Positions 21,342-63,839 of a DNA stretch of 64,000 bases are shown in pieces. Source of the DNA: Bactericera cockerelli. Taxonomy: Eukaryota > Arthropoda > Insecta > Hemiptera > Triozidae. Position numbers and translations under genes: made by a program. The notes beneath the pieces are model-generated. The model ran no database searches. It saw only the letters and a list, made by a program, of their open reading frames with translations, and was not told the origin of the DNA. The stretch's first letter is position 1. Each line of letters opens with the position of its first letter. The stretch spans positions 15,864,079 through 15,928,078 of the forward strand of contig CM044955.1 in the NCBI GenBank assembly GCA_024516035.1, given 5' to 3'.

Positions 21342-21596
21342 TTTTTTTTTTAAGTGGGGTTTAACGTCGCTTTCAACTGCCATGGTCATATCACGACGGG
21401 GGTATCGCATTCGCAGGAAACTCACAAACCTGCTACTCACATTGACCTCACCCAGCCTGAGTGGGGCCAGGAAAAGCCAGCGTCACGAGAATTCGAATTT
21501 GAATGGTCACCCATCCAAGTTTTAACCTCGCTGGATGTCGCTTAACTTCGGTGTTCTGAAGGGAACCGGTGTATTCAACATGCCATCGACGCTGGC
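21342..21596 (-). mobile_element. 5S rRNA-derived SINE, well preserved
   Basis: On the minus strand it starts GCCAGCGTCGATGGCATGTT, has CACCGAAGTTAAGCGACAT and CTTGGATGGGTGACC, and ends in poly(A). It is flanked by a direct repeat of AACTAAGTTTT. The 5S likeness is strong (internal boxes and ends). Confidence 0.85.
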
Positions 21597-23987: not shown

Positions 23988-24212
23988 ATGGGTCAAGAGA
24001 GAATCATCATGGACGTTGTTGCCCTCAACGGAAAAGAAAAGACCTCCATGGACATTGTGGCTCTAGGCAAAGAGAAGACCTCCATGGACATTGTTGCTCT
24101 AGGCAAAGAAAAGACCTCCATGAACATCGTTTCTCTTGGAAAGGAAAAGACCTCCATGAACATTGTGGCTCTTGGAAAGGAAAAGACCTCCATGAACATC
24201 GTTGTTGTTTAA
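23988..24212 (+). CDS. GKEK repeat-peptide gene, copy 4 (74 aa)
   Basis: The ORF is intact; the five units run D D N N N, with IVSL in the third. TATAAAAG is at 23013-23020, the leader exon ends at 23070, exon 2 is 23946-24218, exon 3 starts at 24699 and AATAAA is at 24799-24804. It lies 3.8 kb beyond the mio stop codon and on the opposite strand, so it converges on the 3' end of mio. Confidence 0.78.
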   Translation: MGQERIIMDVVALNGKEKTSMDIVALGKEKTSMDIVALGKEKTSMNIVSLGKEKTSMNIVALGKEKTSMNIVVV

Positions 24213-26568: not shown

Positions 26569-26831
26569 TTTTTTTTTTTTAAGTGGGGTTTAACGTCGCT
26601 TTCAACTGCCATGGTCATATCACGACGGGGGTTTTACCCTCCATTCGCAGGAAACTCACAAACCTGCTACTCACATTGACCTCACCCAGCCTGAGTGGGG
26701 CCGGGAAAAGCCAGCGTCACGAGAATTCGAATTTGAATGGTCACCCATCCAAGTCTTAACCTCGCTGGATGTCGCTTAACTTCGGTGTTCTGAAGGGAAC
26801 CGGTGTATTCAACATGCCATCGACGCTGGCT
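26569..26831 (-). mobile_element. 5S rRNA-derived SINE inserted in U3
   Basis: It is almost identical to 21342-21596 and flanked by a direct repeat of TCTATTTGTTT. U1 and U2 have the empty site (2175, 11720), so this insertion is specific to U3. Confidence 0.87.
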
Positions 26832-28051: not shown

Positions 28052-28154
28052 TCAGCTGAACACTGGAGGCGTAGAGATGGAACCTATCTGGTTAGCGGCA
28101 TCCAGAGAGAGACATTGGCAGGTGCAGGTTGACACAGGGCATTCATTATGTTCA
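28052..28154 (-). CDS. mio: mio exon 15 (terminal exon, residues 856-889)
   Basis: From acceptor TTTTGGTTTCAG the exon completes the split codon and encodes [19 protein letters not shown], matching DHAECPVSACTCKCMQLD, the extreme C-terminus of MIOS. The TGA stop is at 28054-28052. The last codons and the sequence beyond the stop are also present in U1 (3015-3055) and U2 (12668-12708), so the 3' end of this gene lies inside the repeated unit. Confidence 0.9.
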
Positions 28155-31100
28155 CTGAAACCAAAACCAGAATGTCTTCAGTTCCTCTAGTTAAAAAATA
28201 GTACTCTAAATTCTACTTGAAACATTGTCCCCACCAAGGCTGAATTTTTTTGACGAAAAAGTTCTAAAAAAGACGTAAAATTATTTAGCTAGCAATGGAC
28301 TCGTCTCAAACATCACGTGATCTTGTATCGTCTCGTGAAACAAAGGTTTTACTTTAGAATTTTACTTTAGGATTTTAGGATTACTTTAGAATTTTAGTGT
28401 CCCCTGTGGCACTGTGGCAGAGTGAGTTAGCGCGCTAGGCATTGCACACATGGTGACCTGGGTTCGATTCCCAGCGGGGGAGGATTTTTTCTGCTCTGTA
28501 CTTGGATGTTCGGGGTCCACTCATTACTCGTGAGGAAAAATGAGTAGCTGCTTTGATGTGAAGCAGCGACCAGTGGCAGAATCATAGGCAAAAAAAATAA
28601 TACGAGATATTGTAAATTAAAGTGGTAAAGTCCTATGATTCTGCGCTACCCACTAATATTGTGACATACTAACACAAAGAAAAAGCATTATTATTATTAT
28701 TTATTATTTCTATTGAGAGTTGACTCACTTGAACCAGGCGATGAGATGAGCGGCGTGACCCCCGTGGCGGCACACCTGGCACCAGGTGAACCAGGCCCCG
28801 AACTCGTTCAGGTGAACCAGAGTGCCGGCGCGGGATTTGGCGGCCGAGTGGCGGCCATACAGCAGCGCCAGGGAGTCCGGGCCGCCGGCGTCGCCGCCGC
28901 CGCTGGCCTCGGTGCTCGTGTAAGAGGCGGAGGTGCCCATGTTGACCAAACACACCGCACAGCGCGGCTGAGGCTTGCGGCAGTGTGGGCAAGACGTGAT
29001 CTGAAACGAAGCCGCCCAGGAAGTGAGAGTTCGGTGGAATAGGAGGTTGCTTCTGTAGCGGCTCGTTAAGACAGAAGAAAAAAACCTTCCACTAAAAAAT
29101 TCTTCTTGGATATTTCCAAGAAATATAAGAAGCATTATTTTAAGCTTAAGAAAAACGCCTCCGTAAATTTTATTATTAGATAAAAATAAATAAATAAAAA
29201 TATCAAATTTTATTATTAGATAAAAATAAATAAATAAAAATATCATGATAAGAAACAGCAGCTCTCACCTTGTGTAAACAGCAGCTCTCACCTTGTGTAA
29301 ACAGCAGCTCTCACCTTGTGTAAACAGCAGCTCTCACCTTGTGTAAACAGCAGCTCTCACCTTGTGTAAACAGCAGCTCTCACCTTGTGTAAACAGCAGC
29401 TCTCACCTTGTGTAAACAGCAGCTCTTGCCTTGTGTAAACAGCAGCTCTCACCTTGTGTAAACAGCAGCTCTCACCTTGTGTAAACAGCAGCTCTCACCT
29501 TGTGTAAACAGCAGCTCTCACCTTGTGTAAACAGCATCTCTCACCTTGTGTAAACAGCAGCTCTCACCTTGTGTAAACAGCAGCTCTCACCTTGTGTAAA
29601 CAGCATCTCTCACCTTGTGTAAACAGCATCTCTCACCTTGTGTAAACAGTAGCTCTCACCTTGTGTAAACAGCAGCTCTCACCTTGTGTAAACAGCATCT
29701 CTCACCTTGTGTAAACAGTAGCTCTCACCTTGTGTAAACAGCAGCTCTCACCTTGTGTAAACAGCATCTCTCACCTTGTGTAAACAGCAGCTCTCACCTT
29801 GTGTAAACAGCAGCTCTCACCTTGTGTAAACAGCAGCTCTCACCTTGTGTAAACAGCAGCTCTCACCTTGTGTAAACAGCAGCTCTCAGCTTGTGTAAAC
29901 AGCAGCTCTCACCTTGTGTAAACAGCAGCTCTCACCTAGTGTAAACAGCAGCTCTCACCTTGTGTAAACAGCAGCTTTCACCTTGTGTAAACAGCAGCTC
30001 TCACCTTGTGTAAACAGCAGCTCTCACCTTGTGTAAACAGCAGCTTTCACCTTGTGTAAACAGCAGCTCTCACCTTGTGTAAACAGCAGCTCTCACCTTG
30101 TGTAAACAGCAGCTCTCAGCTTGTGTAAACAGCAGCTCTCACCTTGTGTAAACAGCAGCTCTCACCTTGTGTAAACAGCAGCTCTCAGCTTGTGTAAACA
30201 GCAGCTCTCACCTTGTGTAAACAGCAGCTCTCACCTAGTGTAAATAGCAGCTCTCACCTTGTGTAAACAGCAGCTCTCACCTTGTGTAAACAGCAGCTCT
30301 CACCTTGTGTAAACAGCAGCTCTCACCTTGTGTAAACAGCAGCTCTCACCTTGTGTAAACAGCAGCTCTCACCTTGTGTAAACAGCAGCTCTCACCTTGT
30401 GTAAACAGCAGCTCTCACCTTGTGTAAACAGCAGCTCTCACCTTGTGTAAACAGCAGCTCTCACCTTGTGTAAACAGCAGCTCTCACCTTGTGTAAACAG
30501 CAGCTCTCACCTTGTGTAAACAGCAGCTCTCACCTTGTGTAAACAGCAGCTCTCACCTTGTGTAAACAGCAGCTCTCACCTTGTGTAAACAGCAGCTCTC
30601 ACCTTGTGTAAACAGCAGCTCTCTCTCACCTTGTGTAAACAGCAGCTCTCACCTTGTGTAAACAGCAGCTCTCACCTTGTGTAAACAGCAGCTCTCACCT
30701 TGTGTAAACAGCAGCTCTCACCTTGTGTAAACAGCAGCTCTCACCTTGTGTTTGTTGGGGGAGGTGGAGTACTTGGCAGCGGCGTACTGCTTGCCCCCGC
30801 CCCCCGACTTTTTCATCCCCTGCAGGTAGGCCGAGATGCTCTTCTTGCAGAAGTTGCAGGAGATGAACACCTGCTGGGGCGGCGGGCGGCTGGCGTTCAC
30901 AAGAATGTCCAGCTTGGCACGGGGCACCCACAGCCGCCAGGAGTCAAGCAAGTTGCGGTAGCTGGGGAGTCATGTTTCGGAAAGTAAATTAATTACCTAC
31001 GTAGGAATATTCTTAAATAAAACCTGAAGGAATACCCACTTGTGATTAATTTTTAAGTTATCAAGAGTTAATCACAGTTACTCAAACTCGCTTGACTAAA

Positions 31101-43100: not shown

Positions 43101-46100
43101 AGCTACTGAGGTCGGTAATATACAAGAAGGAAAAAAAGAGAGAAATGTCCTACTTCAAAGGCGGGGTTAGTGCCTGTGGCAATCTCTTCCACCAAACCCT
43201 ACTCACACCTGAAGAAATATCAACATTGTTCCAGGAAATACTAAAGAAGAACGGGGGGGGGGGGGGGGTTTTAGCGGGTGAGCCGACAGAATTGGTGCCC
43301 TTCAACAGGGGCGACACACCATACCCTGCCGGCAAGTCCCGCATATCCTTCAGCACTAGAGCTTTGCTGAAGGAATCTTAAAAGATTTTCCCCCTAAAAA
43401 AAAAAAAAAAAAAACCCCTACTCACCAGTATGCTATCGTAGTTGTCGCCCTCGGCGGTGAGAAACGCGAAGATGGCCTTGAGGTAGGGGTCGGCGAGCTT
43501 CTGGCGAGACTCGCCGCAGGCCTGGCGCCACAGCCCGGAGCCCTGGGCGGTGTAGCCCGCCAGCGCCATGGCGACGATGCTGAGCCGAGGGTTCGAGCCC
43601 GCCCCGCGGTTCAGAGTCTGGATGGCGCGCGTCAGGTGCAGGTAGAACGTGGCCAGGGCGGCGCCGCGGGCGAACTCCTCCTCTATCTGTGGAGGGGATG
43701 GGAAATAATTGAATCCCAAACTCTATAGGAGTTCACTTAGGAGGTTTTCTTATGCTCCTGATCCTCCTTTCTTATGTTATAATAATAATAATAATAACAT
43801 CGCCTTATTTATACTGCCCGAATAGGACAGTTAACGTCCCATTATTCCAACAGTAAGCTCAAGACACATTATTATGTGGTAAAAATCCCAAATGGGAGGA
43901 TAACTTGTCATGTCCCGGCTGGGTTTCGAACCCACGACTTCTGGAATCTCTGGATTCACAGAGTGCCGCCTTTACCACTGAGCTACCGGGACAGATAAAG
44001 GATTTCTCCTCTTCTATCTGTGGAGGGAATGCAAGTAATTGAATCCCAAACTCTATAGGAGTTCACTTAGGAGGTTTTCTTATGAGCCTGATCCTCCTTT
44101 CTTATGTTATAAAGTATTTCTCCTCTCTATCTGTGGAGGGGATGCAAATAATTGAATCCCAAACTCTATAGGAGTTCACTTAGGAGGTTTTCTTATGAGC
44201 CTGATCCTCCTTTCTTACGTTATAAAGGATTTCTCCTCTATCTGTGGAGGGGATGGAAATAATTGAATCTCAAACTCTATAGGAGTTAACCTCTATAGAA
44301 GAAGGCAAACGTTGGGTCAAGGAAATTGGAAAAGCTTATAGAAAAAACTGGAAACAGCAGAGCGAGTGAATTTCTAATTCAACAAATCAGCATTGCATTC
44401 AAAGAGGCAATGCTGGAAGCATATTGTCATTGCTTCCAATGAAAAGAGATGACACCTTGTTTTACATATGAATATACGAGTAAGTTGTAACAAAAGTATT
44501 TAGAATGAAAAATAATAGGAGTTAACTTAGGAGGTTTTCTTATGCTCCTGATCCTCCTTTCTTATGTTATAAAGGATTTTGAAACGCTTATTGAAAATTC
44601 ATTTAGGGCAAAATTTAATAGACAAAATCGAGTTTGGACTTAAGCAAAGCATTAGTTTCCCCATTTAAAACAATACGCAAAATCTAGACTATTACAAAGT
44701 CCCCAGAGATATTACAAAAACGTCTATTTAAAAATAACACTAGCAGGTTATTATTGTGAAACACCGAAAAAAAAAAAAGATCTTTTGATCTACACAGAGT
44801 CCTCGCAACCCAAGAATTACTTTGAGTTTTCGACTCTCCCTTGGACCAACTATTTCTAACAGATTTTTCCCCCCAAATTGGCCAGCTCGCCCTCACCTCC
44901 AGTTTCTCCAGCACAGACTCCAGCGTATTCTCCTTGTCCAGCTTCCAGCCACACAGCTGGAGCGCCACGTCCCGCTCCAGGCTGGAGTAGACCTTTACCG
45001 CCGCCTTCACATCTGTCCAGGGGGTCTTCACGCACTCTGACTTGGACATGTAGGTGTTCCGGTCCAGACCTGTAACGTAGACCATAATAATAATAATAAT
45101 AATAATGTTTTTTTTTTTTGTCACAATTTTAGTGTAGCGCAAATCATAGGACTTTTTATCATTTTAATATATCATCATAGGGTGGCGTCATCGTGAACGA
45201 TGGTAGCCAGACAGTGAGGAATGACTCAGCACTTCTACCACTGTCTTTACAAGGAGGCTAATAATTGACAAGGGCCCCCAGAACCAAGCCAATTAATTTT
45301 TTTTTTTAAATATAACAGAATTTTAATAAGAGAAACCTCGATATAAGAGAACAATGTCCAGGTCACATTTAACTCTCTGTAAGGGAAAATCACCTCTTTG
45401 TTAGAGCAACCTGAATGTAAGAGAAGAAAAATCCTGTCCCTGGAGTTCTCTTATATCCAGGTTCGACTCTTGTTTATGCGTATAATTTCGCCACTGGTCG
45501 TTGCTCACATCAAAACAGCTACTCATTTTTCCTCACGAGGTATGAGTGGACCTGAGCATCCAAGTACAAAGCAAAAATAATCCTGTTCCACAGCGGATTG
45601 AACCCAGGTCACCCTGCGTGCAAGCCTAGTGTGCAAAGTCTCTCTGCCACGGTGACTGCTTTATGACATTACTATAATAATAATAATAATATCGCCTTAT
45701 TTATACTGCCCGAGTAGGACTATTAAAGTCCCATTATTCAGCAGTAAGCCCAAGACATATTATTATGTGTAAAAATCCCATTTGGGAGGATAACATGTCA
45801 TGTCCCAGCTGGGTTTCGAACCCACGACCTCTGGAGTCTTTGGATTCACAGAGTGCCGCCTTTACCACAGAGTGCCGCCTTTGCTAGCTGCCTTCCAGGA
45901 CTTTGATCCTTGATGTAAGCTCCGGGGATGACATCCGGAAGACATTTCGCAATAGCATAGCACGCTGAATCGCTGATAAAGATTACAGACGGCCAATTTA
46001 TTTTTACTGAGCACACCCTAGAAAAGGAAGATTGTGTACCTCCTAGGTTCGTGATGAATCAGGAGAGCTATTCTGGCAACTGCTCAAAAATATAATCCAC

Positions 46101-55100: not shown

Positions 55101-58100
55101 TCCACTGTAGAAAACACTCGTGTACACTATACTGTACACGTGGCGCTGGATGTGTTAATACTCCCTTGCCTTTATCCTGTATTACCTTATGTTACTATTC
55201 GGTTCGGCATTGTTATAGTTGGTTTCGTCGGTACAGTTTTATATGGCTGCATATCCTTCCTAGCGCTAGTGAATTTATAATTATTGTTTTAACGTCCTGA
55301 CTAGAACAGATTTTTTTGTCAGAAAATTCTGCTAGACCTGCGATCGAACTCAGGACCCCTGGACCACGAAGACTGATTAAAAGTTATTAGATTACTTTAG
55401 TTTACATTACTGTCTTATCATTGCCATGGTTACCTGGTAGATTTTATCTCGGGCGGAGATAGTTTTGAGTGTTTTTCTCCCGTGTGTCCAGACAATGTGA
55501 AAGCTAGGGGACCAGTTGAGAGTCATCCGCTCCACTACACAGTAGTCAGTCAGCAAGCCTTGAATCAGAAACCAAGTCAGAAAAATTGTGAATCACGGCC
55601 GCGAAATGGCAGGACTACTGAAAAATCAGCAGTATTTGAAATCCAGTTAGGTTTGATTATGAAAAAACACATTTATCTTCGTACTTAACCTTTTTCTTTT
55701 CTTTTTATTTTTTAAGTAAATAACATAACACCATATTAGAAAATATTCTGACAAAAGAAAAACCAAAAAAAAGGGGGATGTTTAGTCAAACATTAGTTTT
55801 TTTTTTTACATAGCGTGGTCAAATCGTGTTAAAAAAAAAAACATTATAACAATAACCAGAGAAAAGTGAACGTAACAATAAGGCAAATCGCGGACTGAGT
55901 GTTTGAATGCCAAAATTCGTGCTATAAGCATCTAAACGATACCCTGATTGAGATGTGTGCTTTTTTGGCTCGATGAGCGATTTCGACAGACCACATTCAA
56001 CACTCTGAATATCTCATGTACGCAGATGATTTGAAAATCTATAAAAAAATCAATTCCCAGTCAGACTGCATACTTTTACAACAAGATATAGAATCAGTCC
56101 AAAGATGGCTACAGACTCTCGGACTCTCATTCCATCCCAAAAAATGTTTTTAAAATGTCATACCTCACAAAGAAAACAAAAACAGAACACATTTATCATG
56201 TAAACAGTATCCCAACACAAGAAGTATACAAATTCTCTGACCTAGGTATTACGTTCTCTCCCAATCTATCATGGGATGAACATATCAGAGTAACAGCCAG
56301 CAAAGCTTACCAACGATTGGGAATGATCATAAGATGCTGTAAACCTATAGAAGACATAGACACCATAACACTGCTATACAAGTCAATAGTTCGATCCGTC
56401 ATAGAATATTGCTCCTCACTATGGACTCCAAAAACAAAAACTAACAAAAAAACAATTGAAAATGTTCAAGCTGCATTTGTTAGGTATCTCTTCCAAAAAC
56501 TCAATGGATTCTACCCAAAATATCCCTGTAATATCGGGTACAACACACTTATAGAAAACTTACCTATTGAATCCATTGAGTCGAGATGTCAAAGTAACCA
56601 AATAAAACTCCTTAAGAATATTATTAACGGGGACATATCTAGTTCATACATGACATCCGCAATCGCGTTCAAAGTACCACCACATGGAATCCGAGCCAAC
56701 TCCTCCAAATTATTTTATATACCCACACAAAGTAATACACAAAAATCTCCCATAATATCCGCGATGACTATCTACAACGACCTAGAATATAAACCTGACT
56801 TATTTTTACAACACCATTAGAATAATATTATTTTTGTTCTTATTATCTTTAGATTAAGTTATATATCTTTATTTTTAACCCTTCACATCATTAATTGCTT
56901 ATTAGATTACATGCTATGTACCTAATTAAGTGTAGATGTATATTGAAAAAAAAAAAAAAAGAAGTTTCTCTCTTAAAGATTTTATTTTTTCTTCTATAGA
57001 TATAAGTTGGACCTGGCAATTATTCTCTTGTAATCAGGTTCGACTGTATGCAGTAGAATCTCGCCAGCTTAAAATCCCGATAGGTCGAAAATACCGTTCG
57101 AAAGTGTTCGTCAGCCTTGTCGAACTTCGCCCCTTAATTTAAATCCCGATAGCTCGAAATAACACTTTCTCTTCTTAATTTTATACTGTTGCCTGTTTGT
57201 CCTTCCTAATAAAGCTTTAAAAAAAAACAAAAAAAACACTTCTGTCCGTTGAATATCGAGTTAGTGGCATTGCTCACCGGAGATGGAGATGGTGAGGAGG
57301 CGACTCTCATCTTTGGGATGCCAGGAGAAGGAGGTGAGCTGATTGGAGGGGCCAGGCCTGACACTCCTCTCCAGCACTGTGGCTTCCCCCTCGTCCATAC
57401 TCTGCTGAACATCGTGCAGGTGAATAGCCGAGCTGTCCCTCTGTAGGGAGCCTAGCAGGTTGTGTCTGGAATTCATTATTGAGGGATCTATTATCAAGGG
57501 AAATTCCCCCTCGACCATACTCTGCTGAACATCGTGCAGGTGAATAGCCGAGCTGTCCCTCTGTAGCGAGCCTAGCAGGTTGTGTCTGGAATTTATTATT
57601 GAGGCATCTATTATCAAGGGAAATTCCCCCTCGTACGTACTCTGCTGTACATCGTGCAGGTGAATAGCCGAGCTGTCCCTCTGTAGGGAACCTAGCAGGT
57701 TATGTCTGGAATTTATTATTGAGGGATCTATTATCAAGGGATATTCCCCCCTCGTCCATACTCTGCTGTACATCATGCAGGTGAATAGCCGAGCTGTCCC
57801 TCTGTAGGGAACCTAGCAGGTTGTGTCTGGAATTTATTATTGAGGGATCTATTATCAAGGGAAATTCACCCTCGTCCATACTCTGCTGGACATCGTGCAG
57901 GTGAATTATTATAAATGTGATTGTTATTATTATTATTAACATCATCATCAGTATTAATAATAATAAATGTCAATGTCATTAGAGGAAGCATATTTGAAAA
58001 TGTCGATAGGGACACCAACCAATTAGCGAAATTGATTGCCGTCATTAAACTTTAGTATGTGTAAGAAAATATATGGAGTGGAGTGGTTCTTTCACAAAAC

Positions 58101-61100
58101 TTAGGCTGGAAGGGACCACCATTGGCAATGAGTTGCAACAACCTCACAAGGTGTATGAAATTTTGGAATATGGTACTTTTTTTCAAGATGTAGATACAGA
58201 GATTTGAAAAAAACGAACACAATACTTCCGATTGCTAATATTAGAAAACTCTCGGAAATAAAATTTCTGTTGTTGTGAACTAAAAACTTGCTCTTTGGAT
58301 AGTTCAAATGCTGTGCTGAGTCACAAACAAACGCACCTGGTGGGGCACCAGTTAATCTTGATGATGTGTTTCTTCTGCGCAAGCGCCAACACTGGTTTGT
58401 CAAAGCTGCGCATGTCCCAGATAGCTATGGTGTTGTCCACAAATGAGGCCACGTGATGGTCGTTGAATGGGGCCACCGCCACGCCGAATACGGCCTTCGT
58501 GTTCACGGATTGGACGCCCTTGGGGGTTTCGGACACTGCGGAGAGGTAAAGGTATGAGTACTGCTTGCAGACCCCAGACGATCTACTAGGTTAAAATTTT
58601 ACAACAAGCTGCCCCTAAAAATAAAATTGTCATCAGAAAGAGAATTTCAAAGGAACATTAAAAGTTTTCTATTGAATAAGGCTTACTATTCATTTAAAGA
58701 ATATTTAGATGATAATTTATAATAACTTAGTATTTATATTACCTATATGTATTGTAAATTGTATACTTTTATACCATTGACGTTGTATGAAGCCCTTGGT
58801 CATTATATGCAATAAAAATAAATCTTATCTTAAACTCTGTTAATTACCCTTCATATAGGGTAGGTACTCGTAACTTTCCCTAGCTAAAATGGTCGCTTAC
58901 AGTATTTATCTGAATGCAAAATGTCTAGAATCCAACCAGAGATAAGAAACTAAAAATCTTATCTCAAGCCCAGTAGCTTCAGGTGCTTGTTGCTGGAGCC
59001 CACCAGTATAGTATTCCTACCTCTCAGGTCCAGTAGCTTCAGGTGCTTGTTGCTGGAGCCCACCAGCATAGTATTCCTACCTCTCAGGTCCAGTAGCTTC
59101 AGGTGCTTGTTGCTGGAGCCCACCAGTATAGTATTCCTACCTCTCAGGTCCAGTAGCTTCAGGTGCTTGTTGCTGGAGCCCACCAGTATAGTATTCCTAC
59201 CTCTCAGGTCCAGTAGCTTCAGGTGCTTGTTGCTGGAGCCCACCAGTATAGTATTCCTACCTCTCAGGTCCAGTAGCTTCAGGTGCTTGTTGCTGGAGCC
59301 CACCAGTATAGTATTCCTACCTCTCAGGTCCAGTAGCTTCAGGTGCTTGTTGCTGGAGCCCACCAGTATAGTATTCCTACCTCTCAGGTCCAGTAGCTTC
59401 AGGTGCTTGTTGCTGGAGCCCACCAGTATAGTATTCCTACCTCTCAGGTCCAGTAGCTTCAGGTGCTTGTTGCTGGAGCCCACCAGTATAGTATTCCTAC
59501 CTCTCAGGTCCAGTAGCTTCAGGTGCTTGTTGCTGGAGCCCACCAGTATAGTATTCCTACCTCTCAGGTCCAGTAGCTTCAGGTGCTTGTTGCTGGAGCC
59601 CACCAGTATAGTACGGGAGGAGTAGCGCACCCAGGCAAGGGAGTGGATGGCCTCTGATAGACAGAGCTCTATGATGGGACGGGCGGAGGTCTCGGCGTTG
59701 GGGGAGGCAGACTTCAGATTCTGAGACACCTGGGAGTAGTAGGATCTGAGGGAAAGAGATATTCATCTATTTATCTACAACAAAGCGGAAGTCACCGTGG
59801 CCGAGTGAGTTAGCGCGCGCTATGCATTGCACGCACGGTGACCTGGGTTCGATCCACATCGGGGCAGTAAATTTAAAGAGAAATCAAGTTTGAGATGAGA
59901 TTAACATAAGAGGAATAAATTCAGAGAGGAGTGCAGAGAAATAGAAAGAGAGGGGGTAAAGGTGTTCTCAATTTGATATCATTTTTTTTTTTTTTAATGA
60001 GTGTCTTCTCTTGAAGAAATCACTATATTTATAACTTTTCAACCCCAAAAACTAGCTTACCAATAAACCAGCTTACTGTATAGACATAAGGAAGAGGGTA
60101 GGGTATACGTGGTATGGAAGAGGGTATACCTGGTATGAATGGGGCACTTGAGAGTATCCCAGAGCTGTATGGAAGAGGGTATACCTGGTATGAATGGGGC
60201 ACTTGAGCGTACTCTATAGCAACAGCTTACTCTATTGAAATAAGGAAGAGGGTATAAAAAAGTTAAGTTAAAGTTATCATATTTGTGTAAATCACTTTTG
60301 TGATATCACAACTACTCAAACTCGCTTTACTAAATCTACGCTGAAACCGGAACTTGAACCACCGACCTCCAGGTTACAAGTCCGCCGCCTTATCGATCAA
60401 GCTACTGAGGTCGGATAGGAAGAGGGTATACCTGGTATGGAAGAGGGTATACCTGGTATGGATGGGGCACTTGAGAGTATCCCAGAGCTGTATGGAATAG
60501 TCGGAGCGGTACTTAGTATGGAAGAGGGTATACCTGGTATGGAAGAGGGTATACCTGGTATGAATGGGGCACTTGAGAGTATCCCAGAGCTGTATGGAAG
60601 AGGGTTATACCTGGTATGGATGGGGCACTTGAGAGTATCCCAGAGCTGTATGGAAGAGGGTATACCTGGTATGGATGGGGCACTTGAGAGTATCCCAGAG
60701 CTGTATGGAAGAGGGTAAACCTGGTATGGATGGGGCACTTGAGAGTATCCCAGAGCTGTATGGAAGAGGGTATACCTGGTATGGATGGGGCACTTGAGAG
60801 AATCCCAGAGCTGTATGGAATAGTCGGAGCGGTACTTAGTATGGAAGAGGGTATACCTGGTATGAATGGGCACTTGAGAGTATCCCAGAGCTGTATGGAA
60901 TAGTCGGAGCGGTACTTAGTATGGAAGAGGGTATACCTGGTATGAATGGGGCACTTGAGAGTATCCCAGAGCTGTATGGAATAGTCGGAGCGGTACTTAG
61001 TATGGAAGAGGGTATACCTGGTATGGATGGGGCACTTGAGAGTATCCCAGAGCTGTATGGAAGAGGGTATACCTGGTATGGATGGGGCACTTGAGAGTAT

Positions 61101-63839
61101 CCCAGAGCTGTATGGAAGAGGGTAAACCTGGTATGGATGGGGCACTTGAGAGTATCCCAGAGCTGTATGGAAGAGGGTATACCTGGTATGGATGGGGCAC
61201 TTGAGAGAATCCCAGAGCTGTATGGAATAGTCGGAGCGGTACTTAGTATGGAAGAGGGTATACCTGGTATGAATGGGCACTTGAGAGTATCCCAGAGCTG
61301 TATGGAATAGTCGGAGCGGTACTTAGTATGGAAGAGGGTATACCTGGTATGAATGGGGCACTTGAGAGTATCCCAGAGCTGTATGGAATAGTCGGAGCGG
61401 TACTTAGTATGGAAGAGGGTATACCTGGTATGGATGGGGCACTTGAGAGTATCCCAGAGCTGTATGGAGTAGTCGGAGCGGTACTTAGTATGGAAGAGGG
61501 TATACCTGGTATGGATGGGGCACTTGAGAGTATCCCAGAGCTGTATGGAATAGTCGGAGCGGTACTTAGTATGGAAGAGGGTATACCTGGTATGGATGGG
61601 GCACTTGAGAGTATCCCAGAGCTGTATGGAAGAGGGTATACCTAGTATGGAAGAGGGTATACCTGGTATGGATGGGGCACTTGAGAGTATCCCAGAGCTG
61701 TATGGAATAGTCGGAGCGGTACTTGTCCAGACCAGAGACCAGCAGGTTAGAGTCTATGGGGTTCCAGGCCACCGCGTTGCACTGTCGCGCGTGCTTCGGA
61801 CCTGGCCAAGTAGTAATAATAATAAATCCGTGACGAAAAGATATGCAGAGATATGAGGTACTAGCGGGCTGTCGCCCGCTTTGCGGGCCGAGGCATGGCC
61901 GTAAAGCAAAAAATCCTTTTTCGCCAATGGCAGGTGTTGTAGTGAGAATTTCGAAAAATCCCGTCTTATTGCACATCTAGACTATAAGACAAAGCTACCT
62001 ATCAAAGTTCAGCTTCCTAGGACCTACCAGTTCGGAGAAACAGTGATGAATCAGAGAGTGAGTGAGTCAGTCAGTCAGTGAGTGAAACTCTCTTTTATAA
62101 GTATGAAGTATAGATAAGGATTAGGTTGACGAAGATCCATATTCTGCTGGGCTTCAGCCATACTCAATTTTTTTTTTTAATAATAACAATAATAATAAAT
62201 ACCGTTAGGTATTGTATATTTCTTGGTACATGAACAATAAAAAAAAAAAAAAAAATACAGATACAAACAAATTACCAATACCAATTTCAACAAAAATTAT
62301 TCAGCACGAGAGGTTTTACCGTCTATTCGCTGAAAATTCACAAATCCACAAGCAGCCCCGGATCAGAAGGGTTTAAACCTGAGTGATCGTTGGTCACTCA
62401 CCAAGTCCTAACCACACCGAACGTTACTTCAGAACGTTACGATCAACTGTTGAAGATTGATAGTCAAATATTTCCGATTTCTTGTATTAGAAATTCACCA
62501 TAAGAAAAATGAGTGTTTCTTCTTCTTCTTCTTCTTTTACTCTGTCTTATCCCGCTCAAGCAGGGTCGACGTTGTTCAACCTCATGGTTGAGGTTGCTTG
62601 GTTATGGCACATGTTTTACGACTGGATGCCCTTCCTAACGCCAACGGTTCTATTTGATTTAACGTCCTGGATTAGGACGGGGGTTTTACCCTCCATTCGC
62701 TGAGAATCGTACCAGCTACCCACATTAACCTCACCCAGCCTGGGTAGGGCCGGAAATGGCTGCCTCACGTGTTTGGATGGAACAGAATTTTCTTCGAAAA
62801 GTCTGCCCCAGCCGGGAGTTGAACTCGGGAACTCTGGACTACGGGCAGTAGTCACAAGGCCCGAATTCAGCCCGTGAGGCCAAGTGTTTCTTTGCAGATA
62901 TAATGAGTGTGTATTTACAACTGTAATCAAATTTAAAACTTTTTTTTGTTCTAGCTAGGGTATGAACCGCTTGTTAAGCTCGTATGAAATTAGAAAGCAA
63001 CTCACTGAGCTCCAGGCCCGTGAGGCCAAGGGCATCATAGGCGGAGGGGCCGAAAGTGGTGAGCACCACCTTGCCATTGGCCTGTCCCAGGGCCAGTAGC
63101 ATGTCGCCAGGATCTGCATGAGGGTAGATGTCCACACACTTGACGTAGTGGTGGTAGCTGTTAGTGGCGAGCAGGTGGGCGTAGGTGCTGGTCGAGATGG
63201 GAACCGCTGGGGACACACAACACATGGGTGAAGTTTTTTTTTTAAATAAGATTTTAATGTTGCGTTCAGAATAAAATTAACATTTTTTCAGCAACTAGGT
63301 GATTGATAAATGACTAAAGATTTTAAGATGTATAGTAGTGCATTGTATGCTAGCAACTAATGTTGGTTTGAATAGTATTGATGGTTAGCTAGGTTGGTGA
63401 AAAGATGTACAATGTACATAATACATAAATAAGTGCTGAGTTACTAACTAAGGTAAGTTAATAGTAAACAAATAGAATATTGGTGAAGGATAGCAACACT
63501 AAAAATGATAATAATTCCTTATTTATATAGCCCAATTAGGACTATAATTATAAAGTCCATTATTCTAGCAGTAAGTTCAAACGTATTATTAAGTAGTAAA
63601 AATAGCAAATGGGAGGATAACAAGTCGTGTCCCGACTGGGTTAGTATTTTTGATAAAGAAAATTCTGGATCCCTCTAAAAATTTTCACAGGTATAAAAAA
63701 AGTAATAAAAGAGGATCTTACATGGTGCCTTGGCCTGTTTACTCATACATGTCTCATAGAGAAAGATTTCGTTGCCCCATGTTATAAATTTCTTTGGGTG
63801 GACCGGTGACCACTGGACTTCAAGTCTGATGTTGCTCAT
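28052..63839 (-). CDS. mio: mio/MIOS, GATOR2 complex subunit (15 coding exons, whole gene)
   Basis: This is the orthologue of human MIOS and Drosophila missing oocyte. MIOS works with WDR24, WDR59, SEH1 and SEC13 in GATOR2, which opposes GATOR1 and promotes TORC1 activation at the lysosome; in flies it is needed for oocyte fate. Joining the exons at 63839-63722, 63206-63006, 61801-61663, 59745-59561, 58535-58337, 57465-57278, 55558-55434, 54257-54050, 45069-44897, 43686-43426, 42157-42019, 31503-31362, 30961-30745, 29000-28729 and 28154-28052 gives 2670 nt, or 889 codons plus stop. The order is an N-terminal WD40 propeller (about residues 1-390), an alpha-solenoid, then C-terminal zinc-binding cysteine clusters. 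Recognisable stretches include [38 protein letters not shown] and [11 protein letters not shown]. Every junction is GT-AG and every phase agrees. Odd features are arrays over five splice junctions and introns of about 9 and 10.5 kb that hold repeat-borne genes. A minus-strand AATAAA at 27663-27668 is a possible but unproven poly(A) signal. Confidence 0.95.
28404..28590 (+). mobile_element. tRNA-derived SINE, AGTGAGTTAGCGCGC family, in mio intron 14
   Basis: TGGCAGAGTGAGTTAGCGCG and GGGTTCGATTCCC are clear A and B boxes. The body follows with TCGTGAGGAAAAATGAGTAG. Related copies are at 45480-45665 (-) and 59792-59862 (+). Confidence 0.78.
28669..28728. other. mio intron 14 acceptor-distal start with ATT microsatellite
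   Basis: Immediately downstream of the exon 14 donor (minus strand) is a short ATT-rich run at 28687-28708. The rest of the intron down to 28155 holds a tRNA-derived SINE (28404-28590) and an AT-rich stretch with no other signal I can name. Confidence 0.4.
28729..29000 (-). CDS. mio: mio exon 14 (zinc-binding C-terminal domain, residues 766-855)
   Basis: The exon reads [20 protein letters not shown], then an insert rich in Ser, Gly and Ala, then [20 protein letters not shown]. The paired CxxC motifs and the CRHGGHAAH motif are those of the MIOS RING-like domain. The donor AA|GTGAGT is strong. If it is skipped, the frame ends at once (W-F-K-stop) and the last cysteine cluster is lost. GC content is much higher than in the surroundings. 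Confidence 0.94.
29252..30748 (-). repeat. 23-bp minisatellite over the exon 13 donor (about 65 units)
   Basis: The plus-strand unit is TGTAAACAGCAGCTCTCACC plus TTG. On the minus strand every unit presents ACAAG|GTGAGAG, close to the ideal 5' splice site, and the exon 13 donor itself is the first. Variants include CAGCAT for CAGCAG, CAGCTTG, CCTAGTG, TTGCC and one 4-nt CTCT expansion near 30620. Reading past the first donor gives [12 protein letters not shown], so only the first donor yields an open protein. There are no unique spacers, so this is not a CRISPR array. Confidence 0.97.
30745..30961 (-). CDS. mio: mio exon 13 (first zinc knuckle, residues 693-765), donor inside a 23-bp array
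   Basis: From acceptor CTCCCCAG the exon gives [19 protein letters not shown], then [20 protein letters not shown] and STSPNKHK. It matches [20 protein letters not shown]...FVSCNFCGKSIS...SPTKSK of MIOS. The CxxC supplies part of the C-terminal zinc site. The donor AAG|GTGAGA is the first of about 65 near-identical donors in the array that follows. Confidence 0.93.
31085..31325 (-). mobile_element. tRNA-derived SINE, AGTAGCTTGATCG family, tandem partial copies
   Basis: GATCTCAGTAGCTTGATCGA and GGTGGTTCAAGTCCC on the minus strand are the boxes. A degraded copy lies alongside at 31085-31160. Others are at 42965-43118 (-), 54412-54565 (+) and 60255-60418 (-). Confidence 0.7.
31362..31503 (-). 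CDS. mio: mio exon 12 (residues 646-692)
   Basis: The acceptor CCCCTCAG joins in phase 1. The exon reads [20 protein letters not shown], then [13 protein letters not shown] and [10 protein letters not shown]. It corresponds to [23 protein letters not shown]...YWIENY of MIOS; TGDVQT is shared. The donor is AG|GTAACT. Confidence 0.9.
31504..31915. other. mio intron 11, first 400 bp, nothing recognised
   Basis: AT-rich sequence between the exon 12 acceptor and the start of sequence shared with U1/U2 (about 31915). I see no gene, array or repeat family. Confidence 0.4.
32531..36053. mobile_element. 3.5-kb DNA transposon-like element with CCCCTTAAACAAAAA ends
   Basis: The left end CCCCTTAAACAAAAA is inverted at the right end (TTTTTTGTTTAAGGGG). 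It splits sequence continuous in U1 and U2 (compare 3795). The subterminal regions are rich in CTCGGAG/CTCCGAG words: single ones at 32580-32790 and a tandem of about 57 bp at 35740-35880. The inside holds a LINE tail (about 35480-35640), fragments of a SINE body (33830-34500), and two open frames with no recognised relatives (33342-33115 minus, 34630-34959 plus). I could not fix the target duplication. Confidence 0.7.
37190..37460 (+). mobile_element. 5S rRNA-derived SINE in intron 2 of gene copy 5
   Basis: Same family and place as 6513 and 15420; the head reads CCGATCACTGAAGTTAAGCA. Confidence 0.78.
37745..37935 (-). mobile_element. LINE 3' tail (minus), U3 counterpart
   Basis: Same sequence and place as 15940-16145, beside gene copy 5. 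Confidence 0.65.
38051..38275 (-). CDS. GKEK repeat-peptide gene, copy 5 (74 aa), nested in mio intron 11
   Basis: The ORF is intact (D D D N N). TATAAAAG is at 39086-39079, the leader exon ends at 39029, exon 2 is about 38318-38045, exon 3 starts at 37096 and AATAAA is at 36996-36991. It has the same strand as mio and lies wholly inside its 10.5-kb intron 11, so its acceptors and poly(A) signal could compete with mio processing. Confidence 0.77.
   Translation of the reverse strand: MGQERIIMDVVALNGKEKTSMDIVALGKEKTSMDIVALGKEKTSMDIVALGKEKTSMNIVALGKEKTSMNIVVV
39030..39195 (-). promoter_or_regulatory. Promoter of gene copy 5
   Basis: The outer TGACAACACGTCA, TATAAAAG at 39086-39079 and the leader donor G|GTAAGTAC are present. 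The GATA motif reads CAGATAAG on the minus strand. Confidence 0.7.
39371..40149. mobile_element. TA-flanked foldback MITE in mio intron 11
   Basis: The ends TACAGGGTCC and GGATCCTGTA sit on TA. Long imperfect arms share ATTGATCATGAACCATTTT, and a perfect hairpin at about 39817-39862 (CCAGATGGGGCTGACGTCC and its inverse) forms the centre. Confidence 0.8.
40487..41495. mobile_element. TA-flanked ~1-kb palindromic MITE in mio intron 11
   Basis: The ends CAGGGTGGGGCAAAAGTCTG and its inverse (41476-41495) are flanked by TA. The element is nearly palindromic throughout, with each arm containing two copies of a CTGGAAACCCCTGAATAT-type block. The ends and target suggest the Tc1/mariner group. No ORF is preserved. 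Confidence 0.82.
41594..41788 (-). mobile_element. tRNA-derived SINE, GGTAGC family, AAT tail
   Basis: The minus-strand head is GTCCCGGTAGCTCAATGGTA with a conserved B box (GGGTTTGAAACCC); the tail runs into an AAT microsatellite at 41577-41596. It lies just downstream of mio exon 11. Confidence 0.8.
42019..42157 (-). CDS. mio: mio exon 11 (residues 600-645)
   Basis: The acceptor TCCTTCCAG leads to [20 protein letters not shown], then [19 protein letters not shown], aligning with [41 protein letters not shown] of MIOS. The donor G|GTCAGA is weak but fits the phase and the protein. The next intron is about 10.5 kb and holds gene copy 5, two TA-flanked MITEs and a 3.5-kb transposon. Confidence 0.92.
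42655..42845 (-). mobile_element. tRNA-derived SINE, GGCGTAACGG family
   Basis: The head is CAGCCTCCGTGGCGTAACGG with B box GCGTTCGATTCCC. It lies in mio intron 10 next to a LINE tail. Confidence 0.75.
42845..43415 (-). mobile_element. LINE tail fragments around a SINE, with G16 and A-run
   Basis: A LINE-type tail (42845-42960), a SINE (42965-43118) and a second LINE-derived piece (43130-43415) follow one another. The last piece contains 16 consecutive G at 43253-43268 and an A run at 43396-43414. It abuts the exon 10 donor region. Confidence 0.6.
42965..43118 (-). mobile_element. tRNA-derived SINE, AGTAGCTTGATCG family
   Basis: The head is GACCTCAGTAGCTTGATCGA with B box GGTTCAAGTCCC. It lies in mio intron 10. 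Confidence 0.75.
43426..43686 (-). CDS. mio: mio exon 10 (solenoid, residues 513-599), acceptor inside a ~111-bp array
   Basis: The exon reads [20 protein letters not shown], then [19 protein letters not shown] and [15 protein letters not shown], matching MIOS around AAAVALFNLDIRRAIQILNEGA, LNVVAMALSGYT and MFAFLTSETGSYDGVL. It is noticeably GC-rich. The acceptor CCTCCACAG|ATAGAG is repeated upstream in the transcript. The donor CTG|GTGAGT is followed by a long homopolymer (T on the minus strand). Confidence 0.93.
43678..44576 (-). repeat. ~111-bp tandem repeat over the exon 10 acceptor (4 units plus a detached fragment)
   Basis: The acceptor landmark CTATCTGTGGAGGG (plus strand) recurs at 43683, 44014, 44127 and 44238. 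On the minus strand each unit ends in CCTCCACAG|ATAGAGGAG, the true acceptor and start of exon 10. Subtracting the SINE at 43778-43995, the spacing is 109-113 bp. A partial unit (44515-44576) is separated by about 230 bp of unrelated sequence. Using a distal acceptor leads to a TAA within ten codons. Confidence 0.9.
43778..43995 (-). mobile_element. tRNA-derived SINE inside the exon 10 acceptor array
   Basis: The head is GTCCCGGTAGCTCAGTGGTA and an AAT tail is present. It splits the first and second units of the array, so the array existed before this insertion. Confidence 0.82.
44897..45069 (-). CDS. mio: mio exon 9 (solenoid, residues 455-512)
   Basis: The acceptor GTTACAG joins in phase 1 and gives [18 protein letters not shown], then [17 protein letters not shown]. 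The ALQLCGW motif is a hallmark of MIOS. The donor is GAG|GTGAGG in phase 0. A run of AAT repeats lies just outside the acceptor. Confidence 0.93.
45325..45470. mobile_element. Short Tigger/pogo-like MITE
   Basis: AACCTCGATATAAGAGAAC at the left and GTTCTCTTATATCCAGGTTC at the right are inverted. This end sequence type is common in Tigger-like elements. A related end fragment (CAGTAGAATCTCGCC) is at about 57050-57064. Confidence 0.6.
45480..45665 (-). mobile_element. tRNA-derived SINE, AGTGAGTTAGCGCGC family
   Basis: It is an inverted relative of 28404-28590; the B box is GGTTCAATCC on the minus strand. The A-box region is damaged. It lies in mio intron 8. Confidence 0.7.
45683..45875 (-). 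mobile_element. tRNA-derived SINE, GGTAGC family
   Basis: The body and AAT tail are like 41594; the head is replaced by a short duplication (two copies of ACAGAGTGCCGCCTTT). Confidence 0.75.
45880..46290. other. Unassigned stretch in mio intron 8
   Basis: Between a SINE and the start of the spacer shared with U2. It contains CTTTGATCCTTGATGTAAGC and an AT-rich part; no coding pattern or repeat family was recognised. Confidence 0.4.
46345..46865 (+). repeat. Dispersed module in the U3 spacer
   Basis: It has the same start as 18549 (GGAGCTGGCATATCAGAAG). It is truncated at GACAGACCGACA and followed directly by the sequence matching 20290. Confidence 0.65.
47050..47240. repeat. Degenerate AGCAGCAAGGAGAATTTTGA repeat, U3 counterpart
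   Basis: About six units correspond to 20480-20930. The flanks (ACATTGAATTTTGTTGAGCA, GAGCACCATAATTACGTTAA) match on both sides. Confidence 0.8.
47310..47525 (-). mobile_element. LINE 3' tail within the spacer
   Basis: GGAAGAGATTGCCATAGGCA and AATAAAGAGTTTC on the minus strand mark the family. It interrupts sequence that is continuous at 20960 in U2, between ATATTGTAT and CATCAGTTAG. Confidence 0.7.
48985..49234 (-). mobile_element. tRNA-derived SINE, GGCGTAACGG family, inside the pogo remnant
   Basis: The head is CAGCCTCTGTGGCGTAACGG with B box TAGTTCGATTCCC. It is younger than the pogo-like element it interrupts. A degraded copy lies at about 55285-55378. Confidence 0.75.
49530..49725 (-). 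pseudogene. pogo-type transposase N-terminal fragment
   Basis: From the ATG at 49725 it reads [18 protein letters not shown], then [20 protein letters not shown], the pattern of the psq/CENP-B-like helix-turn-helix at the start of pogo transposases. The frame breaks at about 49600 by a one-base change in a T run; similar coding continues briefly in another frame and then decays. The DDE catalytic part is not seen. Confidence 0.75.
50390..50547 (+). promoter_or_regulatory. Promoter of gene copy 6
   Basis: TGACAACACGTCA, GATGCAGGGATCAG, GATAAG, TATAAAAG (50490) and the leader donor are present in the usual order and spacing. Confidence 0.7.
51477..51701 (+). CDS. GKEK repeat-peptide gene, copy 6 (74 aa), nested in mio intron 8
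   Basis: The ORF is intact (D D N N N; two IVSL units). TATAAAAG is at 50490-50497, the leader exon ends at 50547, exon 2 is 51435-51707, exon 3 starts at 52538 and AATAAA is at 52638-52643. It lies antisense inside mio intron 8. Intron 2 carries a fuller 5S-derived SINE than the other plus-strand copies. Confidence 0.78.
   Translation: MGQERIIMDVVALNGKEKTSMDIVALGKEKTSMDIVALGKEKTSMNIVSLGKEKTSMNIVSLGKEKTSMNIVVV
52170..52450 (-). mobile_element. 5S rRNA-derived SINE in intron 2 of gene copy 6
   Basis: The minus-strand head reads TGATCACTGAAGTTAAGCAG and TTGGTGACC. In copies 0, 2 and 4 only the head region survives (about 465-545, 9895-9990, 24535-24615). Confidence 0.72.
53548..54010 (+). mobile_element. 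tRNA-derived SINE, GGTAGC family, split by a MITE
   Basis: GTCCCGGTAGCTCATTAGTA and the B box GGGTTCGAAAGC are in plus orientation. The tail resumes at about 53966 after the 271-bp MITE and ends at GGCGATAATATTA. Confidence 0.75.
53695..53965. mobile_element. 271-bp MITE inserted in a tRNA-derived SINE
   Basis: The ends CGTATTTTTCTTTCTAAC and GTTAGAAAGAAAAATACG are inverted. The inside repeats CCAAAGTTAACCAAA words. The halves of the SINE lie at 53548-53694 and 53966-54010, so the MITE is younger than the SINE. The target duplication is unclear. Confidence 0.72.
54050..54257 (-). CDS. mio: mio exon 8 (solenoid, residues 386-454)
   Basis: From acceptor TTCCCAG the exon reads [19 protein letters not shown] and includes [17 protein letters not shown]. 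It corresponds to the MIOS segment containing MRLRALSRYGLD and LKSLWYTLHFM. The donor is G|GTGAGT. The downstream intron (54049-45070, about 9 kb) carries gene copy 6 of the GKEK repeat on the opposite strand. Confidence 0.9.
54412..54565 (+). mobile_element. tRNA-derived SINE, AGTAGCTTGATCG family
   Basis: CCTCAGTAGCTTGATCGATA and GGTTCGAGTCCC are in plus orientation. It lies in mio intron 7. Confidence 0.75.
54830..55158. mobile_element. TTAA-flanked MITE (piggyBac-like), 329 bp, in mio intron 7
   Basis: The ends are TTAACACATTCAGCGCCA and TGGCGCTGGATGTGTTAA. The inside has several GTGTACACT/AGTGTACAC inverted words. The terminal sequence differs from the 27726 element except for TTAACAC, so it is a related but distinct family. 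Confidence 0.8.
55434..55558 (-). CDS. mio: mio exon 7 (residues 344-385)
   Basis: This short exon is not obvious as an ORF and was found by filling the gap between exons 6 and 8. From acceptor ATTCAAG it reads [20 protein letters not shown], then [19 protein letters not shown], matching MIOS around [29 protein letters not shown]. The donor is CAG|GTAACC in phase 0. A later AG (TGTGTAG) is possible but fits the family less well. Confidence 0.85.
55998..56819 (+). pseudogene. Reverse transcriptase C-terminal part of a non-LTR retrotransposon
   Basis: The catalytic motif YADD is encoded at 56019-56030 in the context [12 protein letters not shown]. Further on come [28 protein letters not shown] and [12 protein letters not shown], the usual order after the YxDD box in Jockey/CR1-like LINEs. 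A one-base shift in a T run at about 56140-56150 separates the two parts; the second is open for 221 codons to the stop at 56819. It lies antisense in mio intron 6. Confidence 0.9.
57278..57465 (-). CDS. mio: mio exon 6 (end of propeller, residues 281-343), acceptor inside a 120-bp array
   Basis: The acceptor ATTCCAG|ACACAACC completes Arg and the exon reads [20 protein letters not shown], then [19 protein letters not shown], matching MIOS around GLLATLTRDSNIIRLYDMQ and IIERSVQP...SFAWHP. The donor is G|GTGAGC. I chose the acceptor nearest the exon body. Three to four further complete copies of the acceptor with the first part of the exon lie upstream in the transcript and stay in the same open frame. 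Confidence 0.88.
57415..57905 (-). repeat. 120-bp minisatellite over the exon 6 acceptor (about 4 units)
   Basis: The period is 120 bp (landmark TGAATAGCCGAGCTGTCCCT at 57421, 57541, 57661 and 57782). Each unit contains an intron end, the acceptor ATTCCAG, and the first 70-odd nt of exon 6 through [13 protein letters not shown]. The minus-strand frame is open through the units because 120 is a multiple of three; the intronic part reads [13 protein letters not shown]. Small differences include GTC/GAC/GTAC near the end of the coding part and one inserted base at about 57750. Confidence 0.93.
58337..58535 (-). CDS. mio: mio exon 5 (WD40 blade, residues 215-280)
   Basis: The acceptor is CTCTCCGCAG and the donor AG|GTGCGT. 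The exon encodes [20 protein letters not shown], then [16 protein letters not shown] and KINWCPTR, aligning with NTKAVQGVTVDP...VAIWDLRKFEKPVLTL...WCPTR of MIOS. It ends in phase 2. No tandem array sits on its junctions. Confidence 0.94.
58565..58832 (+). mobile_element. 3' end of a second non-LTR retrotransposon
   Basis: The frame [18 protein letters not shown], then [15 protein letters not shown] and stop, is the typical C-terminus of a LINE protein. It is followed by a short 3' UTR with ATGCAATAAAAATAAATC and a CTTAT tail. A similar tail (AAATAAAACAATTTATCTTA) occurs at 54364-54410. Confidence 0.8.
59000..59615 (-). repeat. 60-bp minisatellite over the exon 4 donor (about 10.7 units from 58975)
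   Basis: Near-identical 60-bp units start at about 58975 and run to 59615. On the minus strand each unit holds the last part of exon 4 ([16 protein letters not shown]), the donor GAGAG|GTAGGAAT, and 11 nt leading into the next copy. Sixty is a multiple of three and the frame is open throughout, so the array reads as 20-residue WD40-strand repeats. The only internal change I see is one T/C difference in the second unit. The outermost unit loses the donor (GAG|ATAAGA). An open frame on the opposite strand is a shadow of the same repeat. Confidence 0.95.
59561..59745 (-). CDS. mio: mio exon 4 (WD40 blade, residues 153-214), donor inside a 60-bp array
   Basis: The acceptor TTCCCTCAG joins in phase 2. 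The exon encodes a variable linker ([17 protein letters not shown]), then [16 protein letters not shown] and [16 protein letters not shown], the last strand of a WD40 blade. It matches MIOS around LSLCWLP...LLAGMHRNLAIFDLR. The first donor is GAGAG|GTAGGA. About ten more copies of the exon end and donor follow downstream, all in the same open frame. Confidence 0.9.
59792..59862 (+). mobile_element. tRNA-derived SINE head, AGTGAGTTAGCGCGC family
   Basis: TGGCCGAGTGAGTTAGCGCG and GGGTTCGATCC are present; little body follows. It lies just upstream of mio exon 4 in the transcript. Confidence 0.68.
60080..61700 (-). repeat. Compound minisatellite over the exon 3 donor (55- and 81-bp units)
   Basis: Units alternate between about 55 bp and about 81 bp; the longer ones include GAATAGTCGGAGCGGTACTTA, listed here only as a landmark near 61540. 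On the minus strand they carry the exon 3 end ([15 protein letters not shown], with YRSDY in the longer ones) and the donor ACCAG|GTATACC. Short 19-bp pieces of the donor region also occur alone. The array is interrupted by a tRNA-derived SINE at 60255-60418, with degenerate units continuing to about 60080. Higher-order blocks recur, for example 60510-60870 and 61000-61290. Confidence 0.92.
60255..60418 (-). mobile_element. tRNA-derived SINE inside the exon 3 donor array
   Basis: The head is GACCTCAGTAGCTTGATCGA with B box GGTTCAAGTTCC. Array units occur on both sides, so it inserted into an existing array. Confidence 0.78.
61663..61801 (-). CDS. mio: mio exon 3 (WD40 propeller, residues 107-152), donor inside an array
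   Basis: The acceptor GGCCAG completes the split codon and the exon reads [19 protein letters not shown], then [18 protein letters not shown] and LKCPIHTR. This is the most strongly conserved MIOS block. The chosen donor CCAG|GTATAC is the first one met in transcription order. The last part of the exon, with its donor, is copied many times to the left (array 60080-61700), so the true donor needs transcript evidence. Confidence 0.9.
61860..62115 (+). mobile_element. Dispersed repeat starting CTAGCGGGC (second copy)
   Basis: It starts ACTAGCGGGCTGTCGCCCGC and has the same internal blocks and a GTGAGTGAGTCAGTCAGTCA run. It lies in mio intron 2, 60 bp before the exon 3 acceptor. Confidence 0.7.
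62116..62512. other. Unassigned stretch in mio intron 2
   Basis: AT-rich with T, AAT and A runs and a weak 5S-SINE-like body (about 62310-62440, including GGTCACTCACCAAGTCCTAAC). No gene signal was seen. Confidence 0.4.
62513..62860 (-). mobile_element. tRNA-derived SINE, GGCGTAACGG family
   Basis: It matches 16550-16893 closely but lost the last part of the head after GACTACTGCCC. It ends in a CTT microsatellite (62518-62535) and lies in mio intron 2. Confidence 0.75.
63006..63206 (-). CDS. mio: mio exon 2 (WD40 propeller, residues 40-106)
   Basis: The acceptor is CCCCAG and the donor GTGAGT. The exon contains [19 protein letters not shown] followed by [11 protein letters not shown], which matches the conserved MIOS segment around LLAVGQANGRVVLT. 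It enters and leaves in phase 1. An out-of-frame reading also stays open but resembles nothing. Confidence 0.92.
63225..63509. other. mio intron 1, nothing recognised
   Basis: AT-rich sequence with no ORF, array or SINE that I can identify, between exon 2 and a SINE fragment. Confidence 0.4.
63510..63650 (-). mobile_element. tRNA-derived SINE fragment, GGTAGC family
   Basis: The tail (CCTTATTTATATAGCCC) and body are present; the tRNA-like head is missing beyond GTCCCGACTGGGTTAG. It lies in mio intron 1. Confidence 0.65.
63722..63839 (-). CDS. mio: mio exon 1 (start codon, residues 1-39)
   Basis: The exon encodes [18 protein letters not shown] and onward, matching the extreme N-terminus of MIOS (first WD40 strand, W-x-P-x-H pattern). 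The ATG is at 63839-63837 in an AAG-ATG-A context. The donor is GTAAGA and leaves phase 1. A pyrimidine-rich acceptor (TTTCTTTCCAG) ends at 63869, so 63840-63868 is probably the end of a spliced 5' UTR exon, with the transcription start beyond the right edge of the window. Confidence 0.9.

What the first reader, a model, noticed from the sequence alone, without database searches (positions are those of the whole stretch)
28052..63839. Five of fourteen mio introns carry minisatellites centred on the splice site itself
The donors of exons 3, 4 and 13 and the acceptors of exons 6 and 10 each lie inside a tandem array whose unit spans the exon-intron border. Periods (23, 60, about 55/81, 120 and about 111 bp) and sequences differ, so these are five separate events with one shared rule: the splice site is in the repeat. 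Tandem duplication across AGGT-like borders is a proposed route to new introns, but so many in one gene is not something I know of. It suggests a process (nicking, repair or R-loop related) that targets splice junctions in this genome.
Basis: partly seen in the sequence, partly recalled or inferred. Interest (0 to 1): 0.93.

Follow-up and report, generated by a model that had tools for sequence, protein, structure and literature searches.

The report
Minisatellites spanning splice sites in mio
In an insect that looks like a psyllid, five of the 28 splice sites of one ordinary gene (mio) have been copied several to many times over into tandem repeats; the same oddity is known from a few lancelet genes, and here it raises the question of how the cell picks the right splice site and why repeats gather there.

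Summary
The mio/MIOS gene reads as 15 exons with 14 GT-AG introns and an intact 889-aa protein, 90.8% identical to Diaphorina citri, so the window is from a psyllid-like insect. Five of 28 junctions are tandemly copied: donors of exons 3, 4 and 13, acceptors of exons 6 and 10; the other 23 show no significant local copy. The splice site lies inside each unit but is not centred. Copies run from 4 to 65. Against random placement the excess holds (expected 0.5, or 0.85 GC-matched; P 6e-5 to 7e-4), but the test is post hoc, on 12 arrays; a cruder test was weak. No genome-wide test could be run.

The phenomenon is known: "mirages", tandem repeats across exon-intron borders in lancelet genes. These arrays sit at one end only of their introns, so they did not create them. 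The exon-proximal copy restores the conserved protein; inner copies look unconstrained where tested (exon 13). Best reading: neutral border duplications arising near GC-rich exons, tolerated because the outermost site is spliced. A process aimed at splice junctions is possible but unproven.

The parts
28052..63839 (-). mio (MIOS, GATOR2 subunit) coding region, 15 exons, 889 aa: 63839-63722, 63206-63006, 61801-61663, 59745-59561, 58535-58337, 57465-57278, 55558-55434, 54257-54050, 45069-44897, 43686-43426, 42157-42019, 31503-31362, 30961-30745, 29000-28729, 28154-28052
   Evidence: tblastn of P0001 and exact splice-site placement; all 14 introns GT-AG
60060..61724 (-). D3: array containing the donor of exon 3 (exon end 61663); blocks X (24 bp, exon), Y (38 bp, exon end), Z (17 bp, intron start) in 81-, 55- and 21-bp combinations; 10 X, 20 Y, 23 Z counted; a dispersed element at about 60417-60230 (limits by eye) splits it
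58962..59613 (-). D4: 60-bp unit x 10.9 containing the donor of exon 4 (exon end 59561); ten GT donors; reading frame open through all copies; at the end of the last copy the donor is lost
57384..57906 (-). A6: 120-bp unit x 4.3 containing the acceptor of exon 6 (exon start 57465); four AATTCCAG acceptors
43672..44287 (-). A10: 111-113-bp unit containing the acceptor of exon 10 (exon start 43686); four identical CCTCCACAG|ATAGA junctions beginning at 44250, 44139, 44026 and 43695; a further partial copy without the junction near 44562-44525
43779..43992 (-). tRNA-like element inserted inside the A10 array, so later than the array (limits by eye)
   Evidence: Rfam tRNA 43911-43992; sequence
29253..30751 (-). 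D13: 23-bp unit x 65 containing the donor of exon 13 (exon end 30745); GT kept in 61 of 65 copies, the functional one included

Best explanation
These are 'mirage'-type minisatellites. Five independent short tandem duplications each covered an exon end, its splice site and the start or end of a pre-existing intron, and then grew by slippage or unequal exchange. Shown: the arrays, their one-sided position, and that the exon-proximal splice site of each array is the one that gives the conserved protein. Inferred: the spliceosome uses that outermost copy (first donor, last acceptor), the other copies are intronic passengers, and the excess at junctions comes from duplications arising in or beside GC-rich exons, of which only those reaching the intron can grow without breaking the protein.
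For: The gene model with the outermost sites matches the D. citri protein across all five junctions. Using donors 2, 3, 4 or 64 of D13 gives a premature stop. GT is lost in 4 of 65 D13 copies, no less often than change at an average position of the unit (about 17 changes over 23 positions), so inner copies there show no constraint. Exons are 58% GC and introns 35%. None of the 76 TRF rows lies wholly inside a mio exon. Opposite ends of the same introns are not copied. The same structure is reported not to disturb regular splicing in lancelet genes (PMC3087553 section 16, PMC3902484 passage). D3 and A10 contain later insertions, so these arrays have persisted.
Against: GC matching plus a ban on all-exon units still predicts only 0.95 border arrays against 5 seen (P 6.8e-4), so this filter alone does not fully account for the excess. 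No RNA data: use of the outermost site is inferred. In D4 the inner donors tested (2 and 10) keep the frame, 20 aa per unit, so alternative use is not excluded. Constraint on inner copies was measured in D13 only.
Confidence: 0.6

Rival explanations
1. A mutational process acts at splice junctions in this lineage (for example co-transcriptional nicking, R-loop or repair events), so tandem duplications start there preferentially.
For: 5 border arrays against 0.85 expected after GC matching. One D. citri MIOS record (P0002) holds the end of exon 10 three times, with VSELY, which fits a read-through donor, after the first two: a different junction of the same gene in a relative.
Against: One gene, post hoc. 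Only 1 of the 4 D. citri records seen (P0001, P0002, P0012, P0122) shows the exon-10 duplication, and P0002 and P0012 look misassembled. Units start and end at no shared sequence that I could see by eye and at varied distances from the splice site; coding-strand GC skew has no common sign.
Confidence: 0.22
2. The arrays are used: inner splice sites give alternative isoforms (in-frame +20 aa steps in D4) or act as splice-site decoys or U1-binding arrays.
For: D4 frame is open through all copies and ten donors are intact; D3 carries 18 blocks of 34-35 nt bounded by an acceptor-like CAG and a GT, the exon's own included.
Against: The D13 inner donors tested (2, 3, 4, 64) all lead to stops; D3 blocks are 34-35 nt and so would shift the frame; GT is not conserved in D13 copies; a protein search with the D4 read-through found no protein carrying the repeat (1 hit of 27 candidates, a plain MIOS fragment).
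Confidence: 0.1
3. Assembly artefact: copies added or multiplied by the assembler.
For: No reads could be examined; D4 copies match at 99%.
Against: Copies differ by scattered substitutions and some indels, D3 is a composite of three blocks, and two arrays hold later insertions. Arrays of this kind in lancelets are reported with two haplotypes and RT-PCR (PMC3087553).
Confidence: 0.05

Closest known systems
Lancelet 'mirages' (Adh3, globin BflGb6 and BflGb9, TnC; PGBD5 likened to them)
   Same: Minisatellite-like tandem duplication of an exon-intron border, at 5' or 3' ends, with AG/GT signals in many copies; unit sizes 10-160 bp there, 21-120 bp here
   Different: Insect instead of lancelet; five junctions of one gene; up to 65 copies (BflGb6 has 3 and 6). 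Splicing was tested there by RT-PCR, not here
Internal tandem repeats at exon-intron boundaries in human segmental-duplication genes (PMC2812944)
   Same: Minisatellites at exon-intron boundaries
   Different: Those vary between recent paralogues and sometimes form new introns; this is a gene with existing introns, and no paralogue was looked for in the genome
Intron gain by tandem genomic duplication of AGGT (reviewed in PMC3443670)
   Same: Tandem duplication that includes AG|GT at the three donor arrays
   Different: There the two copies become the two ends of a new intron; here only one end of each existing intron is copied

Membership tests
Mirage minisatellites | Tandem unit spans an intron-exon border | tested here: met
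   5 of 28 junctions
Mirage minisatellites | Both 5' and 3' borders can be affected | tested here: met
   Donors 3, 4, 13; acceptors 6, 10
Mirage minisatellites | Many but not all copies keep splice signals | tested here: met
   D13 61 of 65 GT; D4 ten GT and one lost; A6 four and A10 four AG acceptors
Mirage minisatellites | Regular splicing is undisturbed | tested here: inconclusive
   Outermost sites give the orthologous protein; no RNA
Mirage minisatellites | Length instability between haplotypes or somatic cells | not testable with these tools
   One haplotype only; the genome search did not complete
Intron gain by tandem AGGT duplication | Donor and acceptor of the intron lie in copies of the same segment | tested here: not met
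   Opposite ends A4, A5, D5, D9, A14 score 9.0, 9.0, 8.0, 9.5, 9.0 against a null median of 11.5, within 1.5 kb on either side
Intron gain by tandem AGGT duplication | Border is AGGT | tested here: not met
   Donors AG|GT yes (D3, D4, D13); acceptors AG|AC and AG|AT no

The most novel reading that the evidence does not exclude
Psyllid genomes have a mutational process that makes and expands tandem duplications across splice junctions, so mirages are frequent genome-wide and recur at different junctions of the same gene in related species; they would be a natural series for how the spliceosome picks one of up to 65 near-identical donors.
Probability: 0.2. Interest if true: 0.85.

Novelty: new member of a known kind. 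Interest (0 to 1): 0.52.

Why it matters
It would carry border-spanning minisatellites from lancelets to an insect, at a density not described in the sections and passages I read, and gives natural constructs in which one of 4 to 65 near-identical splice sites must be chosen. A genome-wide survey in psyllids could decide whether tandem repeats are aimed at splice junctions or only survive there.

Tried and rejected
Coverage test by 24-mers: too strict for D13 and, on raw sequence, not significant; kept in the report. Intron gain by AGGT duplication: rejected for these introns. R-loop cause: no common G skew. Search for array read-through in other proteins: none. Psyllid DNA in the viral and bacterial collections by one dispersed-element pattern: 0 hits in each. 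The 73-bp array at 19567-19806 was examined as a possible further border array; no coding exon was seen beside it by eye, so it was not counted. Ten literature searches (open-licence papers only, listings seen, listing 10 of 40) showed me no insect case; I opened passages of an earthworm and a prawn paper (PMC12783039, PMC7536079) and found no border-spanning array described there. Most listed papers were not opened.

Full report
What the gene is. The window carries mio (MIOS, a GATOR2 subunit) on the minus strand. A first query made from window frames hit solved MIOS structures. In the protein database the best hit is Diaphorina citri MIOS, P0001. With P0001 as guide the gene resolves into 15 exons and 14 introns, all GT-AG; the 889-aa protein is 90.8% identical to P0001 over 892 columns and 86.2% to a Cyamophila willieti fragment over 645. 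A Cacopsylla melanoneura fragment matches at 90.9% over 198 columns. So the host is a psyllid-like insect; the species is not known to me.

The arrays. Exon 13 donor (D13): a 23-bp unit, 65 copies. One search counted 64 ungapped units from the donor on, 59 starting with GT; one of its five exceptions is a copy with a short insertion whose GT is intact, and splitting the array anew gives 61 of 65 with GT, 3 with CT and 1 with GC. Exon 4 donor (D4): a 60-bp unit; of ten units in register from the first donor, eight are identical, one has one change and the last has three, and the donor at its end is lost. Exon 3 donor (D3): three blocks X, Y and Z, seen 10, 20 and 23 times, make units of 81, 55 and 21 bp; X and Z both end in TTCCATA, a likely place for misalignment (the inference is mine). 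Exon 6 acceptor (A6): 120 bp, four AATTCCAG acceptors. Exon 10 acceptor (A10): 111-113 bp, four identical junctions, with a tRNA-like element inserted between the third and the fourth. Another dispersed element, with three more copies in the window, splits D3.

Is it only these five? For each of the 28 junctions I aligned the 80 bases around it with the 1.5 kb on either side and compared with 250 random places of the gene away from the five arrays. D3, D4 and A6 exceed all 250; D13 is at 0.012 and A10 at 0.028; the other 23 are at 0.11 or above.

Chance. Twelve arrays of the gene were placed at random in the gene with each array collapsed to one unit. Expected border arrays 0.52, P of five or more 6.4e-5; GC-matched 0.85 and 4.0e-4; GC-matched without all-exon units 0.95 and 6.8e-4; uniform without all-exon units 0.54 and 8.4e-5. 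Without the two arrays of the dispersed 36-bp family the four P values lie between 3.0e-5 and 2.7e-4. The list of 12 was mine, taken: array clusters of the gene with a TRF score of 99 or more; lower rows were dropped. A simpler 24-mer test found 4 of 28, P 0.016 on collapsed and 0.70 on raw sequence. All this is one gene chosen because it looked striking.

Not centred. The exon share of the unit runs from 7 of 23 (D13) and about 12 of 111 (A10) to 62 of 81 (D3), about 77-82 of 120 (A6) and about 50-53 of 60 (D4). What is shared is only that the splice site is inside the unit.

How it works. The exon-proximal site of each array gives the protein conserved in D. citri. In D13 the donors tested further in (2, 3, 4, 64) all bring a premature stop; in D4 the further donors tested (2 and 10) add 20 residues per unit in frame. 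In D13 the GT is lost in 4 of 65 copies among about 17 changes over 23 positions (its one insertion copy left out), so inner donors there are not conserved; the other arrays were not measured for this. I infer that the outermost site is used and the rest are intronic passengers. That the arrays made the introns is not supported: the opposite ends of introns 3, 4, 5, 9 and 13 carry no copy.

Relatives. One D. citri record (P0002) contains the end of exon 10 three times, with VSELY, which fits a read-through donor, after the first two. In the window that junction is single. The other three D. citri records seen do not show it, and P0002 and P0012 are jumbled, so this is a lead only. P0122 seems to read a few residues past the exon-9 donor.

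What is known. 'Mirages' were described for lancelet globin genes with reference to Adh3 (PMC3087553: passages and the whole of section 16); a paper on lancelet PGBD5 likens its 60- and 108-bp repeats at splice sites to them and names TnC too (PMC3902484: one passage). In human segmental duplications, tandem repeats at exon-intron boundaries can give new introns (PMC2812944: outline and passages). Tandem duplication as intron gain is reviewed in PMC3443670 (passages). My ten searches showed no insect case (listed under Tried and rejected); they cover open-licence papers only and most listed papers were not opened.

Verdict. A true and striking set of border-spanning minisatellites, a new member of a known kind, with an excess at junctions that one gene cannot explain or generalise.

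Noticed in passing
window 7086-7255, 9396-9568, 16266-16435, 24008-24204, 38064-38233, 51519-51691: A 36-bp tandem unit recurs at six places in both orientations, which looks like a dispersed element with an internal array.
   Followed up: no
window 21475-21596 and 26709-26830: Two 5S rRNA family matches on the minus strand (67 bits each), perhaps part of a 5S-derived dispersed repeat.
   Followed up: no
window 19567-19806: A 73-bp, GC-rich unit x 3.3 outside the mio coding region holds a pyrimidine tract ending in CAG|G, like a splice acceptor; no coding exon was seen beside it by eye.
   Followed up: partly
protein P0121 (Cacopsylla melanoneura): The record loses the end of exon 4 (from about WVRYSS on) and continues in what looks like a shifted frame of exon 5, as if another exon-4 donor was used (the frame reading is by eye).
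   Followed up: partly
protein P0002 (Diaphorina citri): Exon 9 appears twice and the exon 10 end three times in one predicted protein: border duplication or misassembly.
   Followed up: partly
window 56092-56820: A 242-aa open frame on the plus strand in intron 6 reads like the end of a LINE reverse transcriptase (recalled resemblance; for the frame).
   Followed up: no
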